NCBI GenBank assembly: GCA_025642065.1
Contig: JAODUP010000466.1
Coordinates: 125,001 to 189,000 of the forward strand
DNA from: Paralvinella palmiformis
Taxonomy: Eukaryota > Annelida > Polychaeta > Terebellida > Alvinellidae
Direction of reading: 5' to 3'
DNA: 64,000 nucleotides
The translations under genes were made by a program, and so were the position numbers. The notes beneath the pieces are model-generated. The model ran no database searches, was not told the DNA's origin, and saw only the letters and a program-made list of their open reading frames with translations. Shown here piece by piece: positions 58,477 through 59,256 of this stretch. Position 1 is the stretch's first letter; each line of letters begins with the position of its first letter.

Positions 58477-58674
58477 ATATTACGAGACTGGCTCGATAAG
58501 GCCGGGCGTGATTGGTGGCTCCAAGCCGAAGGTGGCCACCCCCCACGTTGTCGACGCTATCACTAATTACAAACAGGACAATCCAACGATGTTCGCCTGG
58601 GAAATCCGGGATAGACTCCTAGCGGACAAGGTGTGTTCTCCGGACAACATACCCAGCGTCAGTTCCATCAATAG
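58477..58674 (+). CDS. Pax2/5/8: Pax2/5/8 RED exon, copy a (alternative)
   Basis: Acceptor TGTCTTTAG|A; donor AATAG|GTAAGG; 198 nt, phase 2 in and out. It completes Arg56 and encodes paired-domain residues 57-122, from YYETGSIRPGVIGGSKPKVA to SVSSINR, that is the linker and most of the RED subdomain (helices 4, 5 and the start of 6). It is homologous to the exon at 59059. Differences from that copy at residues 64 (Arg for Lys), 79 (His for Lys), 85-86 (Thr-Asn), 89-90 (Gln-Asp), 105-107 (Ala-Asp-Lys), 110-112 (Ser-Pro-Asp) and 114 (Ile) lie in the linker, helix 4 and the helix 5-6 loop. The core WEIRDRLL and the SVSSINR helix are unchanged. His79 and Gln89 are the less usual residues for the family, so this looks like the derived copy. 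It has good splice sites and no stop, so it appears functional. Confidence 0.93.
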
Positions 58675-59058
58675 GTAAGGTGTCCCGGAGGCAGGACTCG
58701 TCTTCCAGGCGACCACCCGCGCTCTACCACCACCACCACCACGGCCACCATGCCGTCATCGTCGTCGTTGGTCGCACACAATAAACGTGAACGAAAATCG
58801 TCCACAACTCGTTTTGTTTCTAACCGAGGCTTTGGTGAAACACTGATCTTCTTCTAGGAGTCTCTCTCTCTCTCTCTCTCTCTCTGTGTTTGTGGTGTTT
58901 TTATTTTAATTTTCAGACGTTTTTCTCTCCCCCTCACAGGGTTTCGGCTGTTGCGCTCGCCGCCATAATGCGCCTAACCCGACTAAACCAGTCTTAAGTT
59001 CGTTTGTTGCCCGGCGCTAACTGACTGATTCTCACTAACTGTTTTAACCTCCATATAG
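58675..59058 (+). other. 384-nt intron between the two RED exons
   Basis: The short intron carries a (CCA)n run soon after the first donor, a pure (TC)n tract at 58861-58885, and a good branch-site-like CTCACTAAC about 20 nt before the second acceptor (CCTCCATATAG). At this length the two exons are not kept apart by simple steric clash of donor and branch point, so any exclusive choice needs regulation. Confidence 0.7.
58861..58885 (+). promoter_or_regulatory. (UC)n tract, candidate splicing-regulator site
   Basis: An uninterrupted TCTCTC run 174 nt before the second RED exon acceptor. CU repeats bind polypyrimidine-tract-binding proteins, which are known to repress one member of alternative exon pairs in other genes. 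Such tracts are common in this window, so the link is only suggestive. Confidence 0.3.
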
Positions 59059-59256
59059 GTACTATGAAACGGGCTCGATAAAACCGGGCGTCATCGGAGG
59101 TTCCAAACCTAAGGTCGCCACGCCGAAGGTTGTGGACGCCATCTGTAAATACAAGCGAGAAAACCCGACCATGTTCGCATGGGAGATCAGGGATCGGTTA
59201 TTATCTGAAAATGTTTGTGATCAGGAAAACGTCCCTAGTGTGAGCTCAATTAATAG
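59059..59256 (+). CDS. Pax2/5/8: Pax2/5/8 RED exon, copy b (canonical-like)
   Basis: Acceptor CCATATAG|G; donor AATAG|GTGAGA; 198 nt, phase 2 in and out, the same as copy a. It encodes paired-domain residues 57-122, from YYETGSIKPGVIGGSKPKVA to SVSSINR. Lys64, Lys79 and Arg89 agree with the usual Pax2/5/8 sequence, so this is the conventional copy. By hand count it differs from copy a at 13 of 65 full codons. About 32 of the 52 conserved codons differ silently, which shows an old duplication and selection on both proteins. Either copy can join the exon at 60753 to give Asn-Arg-Ile-Val-Arg. If both were used together the frame would stay open but the linker and RED would be doubled. Confidence 0.95.

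What the first reader, a model, noticed from the sequence alone, without database searches (positions are those of the whole stretch)
58477..59256. Two interchangeable exons for the RED half of a Pax2/5/8 paired domain
Two adjacent exons of exactly 198 nt, 384 nt apart, have identical entry and exit phases (2 and 2). Both encode the same paired-domain segment (residues 57-122) with good splice sites and no stops. They differ at 13 of 65 full codons, while about 32 of the 52 conserved codons carry silent changes, so both have been kept under protein-level selection for a long time. The changes avoid the WEIRDRLL core and the SVSSINR helix and fall in the minor-groove linker (residue 64), helix 4 and the helix 5-6 loop. 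This predicts two Pax2/5/8 proteins with the same PAI half but different RED halves, which could read different DNA sites. The known paired-domain variants (Pax6 exon 5a insertion, Pax8 Ser insertion) work differently. I know of no described RED-exon pair in this class, but I could not search.
Basis: partly seen in the sequence, partly recalled or inferred. Interest (0 to 1): 0.92.

Follow-up and report, generated by a model that had tools for sequence, protein, structure and literature searches.

The report
Pax2/5/8 gene with swappable RED exons
In a hydrothermal-vent worm, the developmental control gene Pax2/5/8 carries, side by side, two different versions of the exon for one half of its DNA-binding domain, and it is predicted to make two proteins that would grip DNA differently; gene models from crustaceans carry a similar pair.

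Summary
Exons A (58477-58674) and B (59059-59256) are 198 nt each, 384 nt apart, in the same phases, with good splice sites and no stops; both code for the RED half of one Pax2/5/8 paired domain. They differ at 13 of 65 codons, with 32 silent changes and saturated synonymous sites, so both look long constrained. The genome is the vent annelid Paralvinella palmiformis; its annotated protein begins inside exon B and omits A.

New here: five crustacean gene models hold the same arrangement, a 'type I' RED then a 'type II' RED (three intact, two with a broken type I); a krill protein and insect proteins use one or the other between the same neighbours. Whether the annelid and crustacean pairs share one origin is unresolved (eight AU tests, none rejects).

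No RNA evidence was available, and all four outcomes (A, B, both, neither) stay in frame, so exclusive splicing is inferred. The start of the recognition helix is identical; helix 4 changes charge. Seven paper searches listed no described RED-exon pair.

The parts
24844..25150 (+). First coding exon of the Pax2/5/8 gene (MSYGMEMMYLTDP...KAKNGRAK G|), predicted
   Evidence: open frame and donor AAG|GTAATG in the phase needed for the PAI exon; resembles by eye the N-terminus of Patella Pax-5 isoform X3 (P0006), incl. ...GR.KG|HGGVNQLGG; no tblastn hit at E 1e-3
51593..51758 (+). PAI exon (166 nt), shared by all predicted isoforms
   Evidence: Pfam PAX
58477..58674 (+). Exon A: first RED exon, 198 nt (R64, H79, T85, N86, Q89, D90, A105, D106, K107, S110, P111, D112, I114)
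   Evidence: Pfam PAX 112.9 bits; donor TAG|GTAAGG
58675..59058 (+). Inter-exon intron, 384 nt; CT run 58861-58885 and two AGs after pyrimidine tracts (TTTTCAG ending 58916, CCCTCACAG ending 58939) upstream of the real acceptor: candidate regulatory or decoy sites, untested
   Evidence: no unusual RNA fold, z 0.34
59059..59256 (+). Exon B: second RED exon, 198 nt (K64, K79, C85, K86, R89, E90, S105, E106, N107, D110, Q111, E112, V114)
   Evidence: Pfam PAX 118.1 bits; donor TAG|GTGAGA; the annotated protein P0121 begins in it
60753..61033 (+). Exon 4: end of the paired domain (R)IVRNKAAEK, octapeptide YTIGSILG, KRKR
   Evidence: matches P0121

Best explanation
Exons A and B are tandem copies of the RED-coding exon of a Pax2/5/8 gene in Paralvinella palmiformis, and they are predicted to be spliced as alternatives, so that one gene would make two transcription factors with the same PAI half and different RED halves. 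Shown: the exon pair, matching phases and borders, good splice sites, a strong excess of silent over protein-changing differences, and a similar pair in crustacean gene models. Inferred: that both are used, that they are used one at a time, and that the choice is made by regulatory proteins (both exons have GT-AG borders, the intron between them is 384 nt, and the frame survives double inclusion and double skipping, so neither spacing nor frame enforces the choice). Inferred function: B has a basic helix 4 (K79, K86, R89; net charge +2 over residues 78-90) and A an uncharged-to-acidic one (H79, N86, Q89; net -1), with the same start of the recognition helix. So the switch would mainly change how firmly and at what angle RED docks next to the PAI-bound half-site, and thereby which bipartite sites or partners are used.
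For: Exact exon pair. pS 0.797 (saturated) against pN 0.114; 40 of 54 differences at third positions; neutral simulations fail. Donor scores 9.96 (A) and 9.42 (B), only 1 of 613 intronic GTs scoring as high; weights recalled. The window's contig holds the genome's only RED hits above 70% identity; five other Pax loci show one RED copy each, in two of them split over two pieces. Other species have very similar REDs: unnamed ORFs P0207 and P0303 share 63 of 67 residues with B; the nemertean Tubulanus shares 10 of 13 discriminating residues with B and 1 with A; P0191 shares 61 of 67 with A. Crustacean models hold type I + type II RED in tandem with the same SVSSIN|R|YYETG joint; a full-length krill protein uses type I and full-length insect proteins type II between ...VSKILS and IVRNKAA. 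Precedent in the same family: COQ2 tandem exons in Alvinella with transcript evidence of mutually exclusive splicing from other alvinellids (passages of PMC12403961). Charges. In calorimetry with Pax6, neither PAI-linker nor RED alone bound the test DNA (passages of PMC7046147), so a changed RED could matter.
Against: No transcript was seen for either exon in this species. The annotated protein uses only B and lacks A, PAI and the N-terminus. Most crustacean evidence is gene models that put both REDs into one protein, which is not alternative use. No other genome with A-like and B-like exons side by side outside crustaceans could be shown: three protein searches listed 120 rows each of 4283, 6392 and 566 hits, clustered at 90% identity, which hides isoforms that differ only in RED. 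No special RNA structure in the inter-exon intron. Recognition-helix start identical, so DNA-site choice may not differ.
Confidence: 0.74

Rival explanations
1. Both exons are normally included together, giving a PAI-RED-RED protein with three DNA-binding modules (always, or as a third isoform).
For: Double inclusion keeps the frame without a stop. Crustacean models P0001-P0003 read PAI or upstream sequence, RED I, RED II in one protein.
Against: Those models are automatic predictions; P0181 (krill) and insect proteins carry one RED between PAI and exon 4; 5 of the 309 proteins returned showed two RED matches plus P0190, and one of these (P0005) is a different thing, two whole paired domains.
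Confidence: 0.1
2. One copy is a relict: only one RED exon (probably B) is still used and the other is decaying.
For: The annotated protein uses B only; B is nearer to other species (94% best) than A (91% best); A has the longer end branch, 0.088 against 0.024.
Against: A has an open frame, intact splice sites and conserved core; if half of the differences had been unconstrained, 0.36% of simulations would match the data.
Confidence: 0.08
3. Both exons are spliced alternatively but the two RED halves are equivalent; the switch matters for regulation or is nearly neutral.
For: Many replacements are conservative (R/K, D/E three times, I/V); helix 6 start is identical.
Against: Net charge of helix 4 changes from -1 to +2 and of residues 105-116 from -1 to -3; both versions appear long preserved.
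Confidence: 0.2
4. Assembly artefact or two alleles stacked in tandem.
For: None found.
Against: Only the exon is repeated, the introns are unrelated, divergence is 28% overall and saturated at synonymous sites; a similar pair stands in crustacean models.
Confidence: 0.01

Closest known systems
FOXP1 exon 18 / 18b (mutually exclusive exons in the forkhead domain)
   Same: A transcription factor swaps homologous exons inside its DNA-binding domain, keeping the frame; there the swap is known to change the preferred DNA motif (passages of PMC11701043 citing Gabut et al. 2011).
   Different: Different domain and animal group; splicing and binding were measured there, only predicted here; here half of a bipartite domain is exchanged.
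Pax6 exon 5a and Pax8 single-residue insertions in the paired domain
   Same: Alternative splicing alters the paired domain of a Pax protein (PMC4488758, parts 1-3 of 7 read).
   Different: They insert residues into the PAI half; here a whole RED exon would be replaced by a homologous one, no insertion.
Chordate Pax2/5/8 paired-domain splice events (medaka 21-bp exon 2a, 24-bp extension)
   Same: Same gene class, same domain, between the PAI and RED exons.
   Different: Short insertions at the end of PAI helix 3; single Pax258 isoforms were found across PAI-RED in two amphioxus species.
COQ2 a/e exons in alvinellids; NALCN exon 15a/15b pairs
   Same: Tandem homologous exons chosen one at a time; COQ2 in the same worm family (passages of PMC12403961); NALCN pairs are shared across phyla with lineage-specific loss of one copy (passages of PMC3557258).
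   Different: An enzyme and an ion channel, not a transcription factor.

Membership tests
Pax2/5/8 class | Paired domain | tested here: met
   PF00292 235.2 bits (PAI+A) and 240.2 bits (PAI+B), cut-off 22; PDB best match Pax5 1k78
Pax2/5/8 class | Octapeptide Y[TS]IX2ILG followed by a KR-rich signal | tested here: met
   YTIGSILG and CKRKRDP in exon 4; motif as written in PMC5333810 passages
Pax2/5/8 class | No homeodomain in lophotrochozoan members | tested here: met
   Precomputed Pfam for the annotated protein P0121 lists PF00292 only; that model is incomplete at the N-terminus
Mutually exclusive tandem exon pair | Adjacent homologous exons with the same borders and phases | tested here: met
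Mutually exclusive tandem exon pair | Both copies kept under protein-level selection | tested here: met
   (pN 0.114, pS 0.797; simulations). It compares the two copies with each other only
Mutually exclusive tandem exon pair | Transcripts contain one or the other, not both | not testable with these tools
   No RNA reads available; annotated protein starts inside B
Mutually exclusive tandem exon pair | A built-in lock (frame break on double inclusion, too-short intron, or mixed splice-site types); common but not required | tested here: not met
   All four outcomes in frame; 384-nt intron; GT-AG borders on both exons
Pax6-5a-type paired-domain insertion | Extra residues inserted into the PAI half | tested here: not met
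   Both exons replace the same 65 codons; no other exon was sought or found between PAI and A beyond the tblastn

The most novel reading that the evidence does not exclude
The RED-exon pair is ancestral to protostomes: exon A corresponds to crustacean type I and exon B to type II, in the same order, and most lineages have since lost one copy (chelicerates keeping the type I kind, insects type II, nemerteans the B kind). Pax2/5/8 would then have been a two-version DNA-binding switch for over half a billion years, overlooked because gene models keep one copy or fuse both.
Probability: 0.25. Interest if true: 0.9.

Novelty: new variant of a known kind. Interest (0 to 1): 0.76.

Why it matters
Pax2/5/8 patterns brain, ear-like sense organs and excretory organs across animals. 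A splice switch that exchanges the RED half would let one gene serve two sets of target sites with no gene duplication, and the RED half is the part whose role is least understood. The pair supplies a natural experiment: the same PAI, two selected RED versions, 13 residues apart. It also gives a practical warning: automatic models either drop one copy (here) or fuse both (crustaceans), so such switches may be missed widely.

Tried and rejected
Tree of RED sequences to date the duplication: 99 rows, 67 columns, poorly resolved. Eight AU tests rejected nothing: A+B sisters, lnL 4.2 lower, p 0.41; B + Tubulanus + three ORFs, 7.9 higher, p 0.71; four core crustacean type I + type II, 27 lower, p 0.098; all arthropod rows, 3.6 higher, p 0.67; B + type II, 4.0 lower, p 0.36; A + type I, 2.2 higher, p 0.55; B-like + type II, 8.8 higher, p 0.74; all type I + type II, 1.4 lower, p 0.45. 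So one ancient or several separate duplications stay open. Rows left out of the tree: identical sequences, unnamed proteins of the first two searches, six proteins with several paired domains or other classes (P0005, P0122, P0123, P0124, P0126, P0132), and the broken type I copies of P0004 and P0190. Overlap of sites that differ in both pairs: 8 of 12 (Petrolisthes), p 0.016 against 34 variable sites but 0.27 against 23; same-order matches 7 against 1 crossed, 8 against 2 (Portunus), 6 against 4 (Amphibalanus): suggestive only.

Structure of exon A alone: mean pLDDT 57, not used. Exon B with 26 relatives: mean 74.5, linker under 50; Foldseek finds Pax5, Pax8, Pax6 and Prd. RNA fold of the inter-exon intron: no better than shuffles. 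Scans of viral contigs (B) and genome contigs (A): no relatives. COX1 in the assembly: none.

Considered and dropped: exon pair in other Pax loci of this genome (none seen; five further weak PAX hits of 29-30 bits cover only parts of profile positions 14-99 and were not pursued); steric exclusion or minor-spliceosome mixing.

Full report
What is there. Window 58477-58674 (exon A) and 59059-59256 (exon B) are two 198-nt exons 384 nt apart, both bordered by AG and GT, both open in one frame, both entered after two bases of an Arg codon and left after two bases of another. Each encodes residues 57-121 of a paired domain plus parts of codons 56 and 122; Pfam scores them 112.9 and 118.1 bits as PAX, profile positions 56-122. 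A tblastn of the window finds one PAI exon and these two RED exons only.

Whose gene. The closest full-length protein is LSH36_466g02016 of Paralvinella palmiformis, from a contig of 324,811 bases, the same length as the contig that holds the window; its pieces match this contig, most at 100%. The species is an alvinellid annelid. That annotated protein starts inside exon B, so it lacks A, the PAI exon and the N-terminus. I place a predicted first coding exon at 24844-25150 by frame, donor and resemblance to a limpet Pax-5 N-terminus, the PAI exon at 51593-51758, exon 4 at 60753-61033 with octapeptide and KRKR, and further exons beyond the window up to about 9.8 kb past its end. The octapeptide and KR signal fit lophotrochozoan Pax2/5/8 as described in passages of PMC5333810. 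In the whole assembly the RED search lists this locus twice (100% and 81%) and five other Pax loci once each at 60-71% identity, two of them in two pieces; five further weak PAX-profile hits were not pursued.

Selection. 54 of 195 bases in full codons differ, 40 at third positions; 37 of 46.4 synonymous sites and 17 of 148.6 nonsynonymous sites differ. A relict copy drifting for even half of the differences would look like this in 0.36% of 5000 simulations. The repeat covers the exon plus 3 and 5 bases, so the duplication is old. All five donors and acceptors are ordinary; donor scores used weights recalled from memory.

Frame and splicing. A alone, B alone, both and neither all read through without a stop into exon 4. 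So nothing in the frame enforces exclusivity, the 384-nt intron is long, and both exons have GT-AG borders. If the exons are exclusive, proteins must choose. The intron holds a CT run at 58861-58885 and two AGs after pyrimidine tracts (ending 58916 and 58939) ahead of the real acceptor; these are candidates for such control, by recalled analogy with pyrimidine-tract-binding regulators, and untested. The RNA fold of this intron is unremarkable (z 0.34).

What differs in the protein. The model of exon B (27 sequences, mean pLDDT 74.5) has helices at residues 78-90, 96-105 and from 117 and matches Pax5, Pax8, Pax6 and Prd structures. Of the 13 differences one is in the linker, five in helix 4, one is the last residue of helix 5 (105), six are in the loop before helix 6. 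The start of helix 6 is identical. Helix 4 goes from net -1 (A) to +2 (B), residues 105-116 from -1 (A) to -3 (B). At the 13 sites B shares K64, K79, R89, D110 and V114 with Pax5, and A shares R64, Q89 and I114 with Pax6. From this I infer a change in how RED docks; a wholly new base preference is possible but not implied.

Relatives. Three protein searches returned 309 different proteins (120 rows listed of 4283, 6392 and 566 hits). Four crustacean proteins hold two RED segments: Petrolisthes, Portunus, Amphibalanus (intact) and Procambarus (type I garbled, marked low quality), and an Idotea fragment holds a cut type I followed by type II. Type I reads GSIRPG...EIRERLL..GVCDQEG, type II GS(Y/F)KAG...YKRENP...EIRDRLL. 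In three of them the second follows the first directly at SVSSIN|R|YYETG, the same exon joint as here. A krill protein of 624 residues has type I, and wasp, moth and other insect proteins type II, between ...VSKILS and IVRNKAA. One more protein with two RED matches, P0005, has two whole paired domains and a homeodomain and is not of this kind. Among lophotrochozoans, nemertean Tubulanus shares 10 of 13 discriminating residues with B and 1 with A; unnamed ORFs P0207, P0302 and P0303 share 9, 9 and 10 with B; P0191 shares 7 with A; Lingula and Haliotis are even (6:6, 5:5). The database is clustered at 90% identity, so isoforms differing only in RED are hidden: absence of a second type in a species means nothing here.

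One origin or several. The RED tree is too short to tell, and eight AU tests rejected no grouping, including A with B and A with type I. The pairs differ at overlapping sites, mostly in the same order (7 same-order against 1 crossed match for Petrolisthes), but the overlap is significant only against the looser background (p 0.016 against 0.27) and the order signal is weak in Amphibalanus (6 against 4). By precedent either is possible: NALCN exon pairs are shared across phyla with loss of one copy in some lineages, beside a separate pair in arthropods (passages of PMC3557258).

What is known. PMC4488758 (parts 1-3 of 7 read) describes short insertions in chordate Pax2/5/8 paired domains and single Pax258 isoforms across PAI-RED in two amphioxus species. 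PMC5333810 (passages) reports six Pax2/5/8 isoforms in Mytilus, grouped by their N-terminal region, and calls annelid isoforms elusive. PMC4625944 and PMC5356317 (passages) gave nothing on splicing of Pax2/5/8. Seven searches of the open-licence PMC library listed no RED-exon pair (I saw listings of up to 25 rows each, not the papers). Subscription papers and preprints were not searchable. The nearest working analogue is FOXP1 exon 18/18b, where the swap changes DNA-binding preference (passages of PMC11701043); tandem exclusive exons occur in COQ2 of the same worm family (passages of PMC12403961).

Verdict. The exon pair is real, old and almost certainly functional; exclusive splicing and a functional difference are the best reading but untested. 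It is a new variant of a known kind (tandem alternative exons in a DNA-binding domain), in a gene class and half-domain where I found none described, with a second example in crustaceans.

Noticed in passing
window 24844-73782 (beyond the window: contig C2004): The public gene model LSH36_466g02016 is truncated at the 5' side: it starts inside exon B and misses exon A, the PAI exon and the predicted first exon.
   Followed up: yes
P0001-P0004, P0190: Crustacean gene models with tandem type I and type II RED segments; several automatic models fuse both into one protein.
   Followed up: partly
window 55610-56202: Minisatellites in the long intron before exon A: a 44/53-base array (55610-55918) running into a 28-base array with about 11 copies (55898-56202).
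   Followed up: no
window 39339-39615 and 13102-13312: A 36-base tandem array with about 8 copies, and an exact 105-base doubling.
   Followed up: no
window 2072-3220, minus strand: An open frame of 382 residues with no Pfam match at E 0.001.
   Followed up: partly
G000 C1834, C510, C1596, C1953, C310: Five weak PAX-profile hits (29-30 bits) covering parts of profile positions 14-99; perhaps transposase-like helix-turn-helix stretches, not checked.
   Followed up: no
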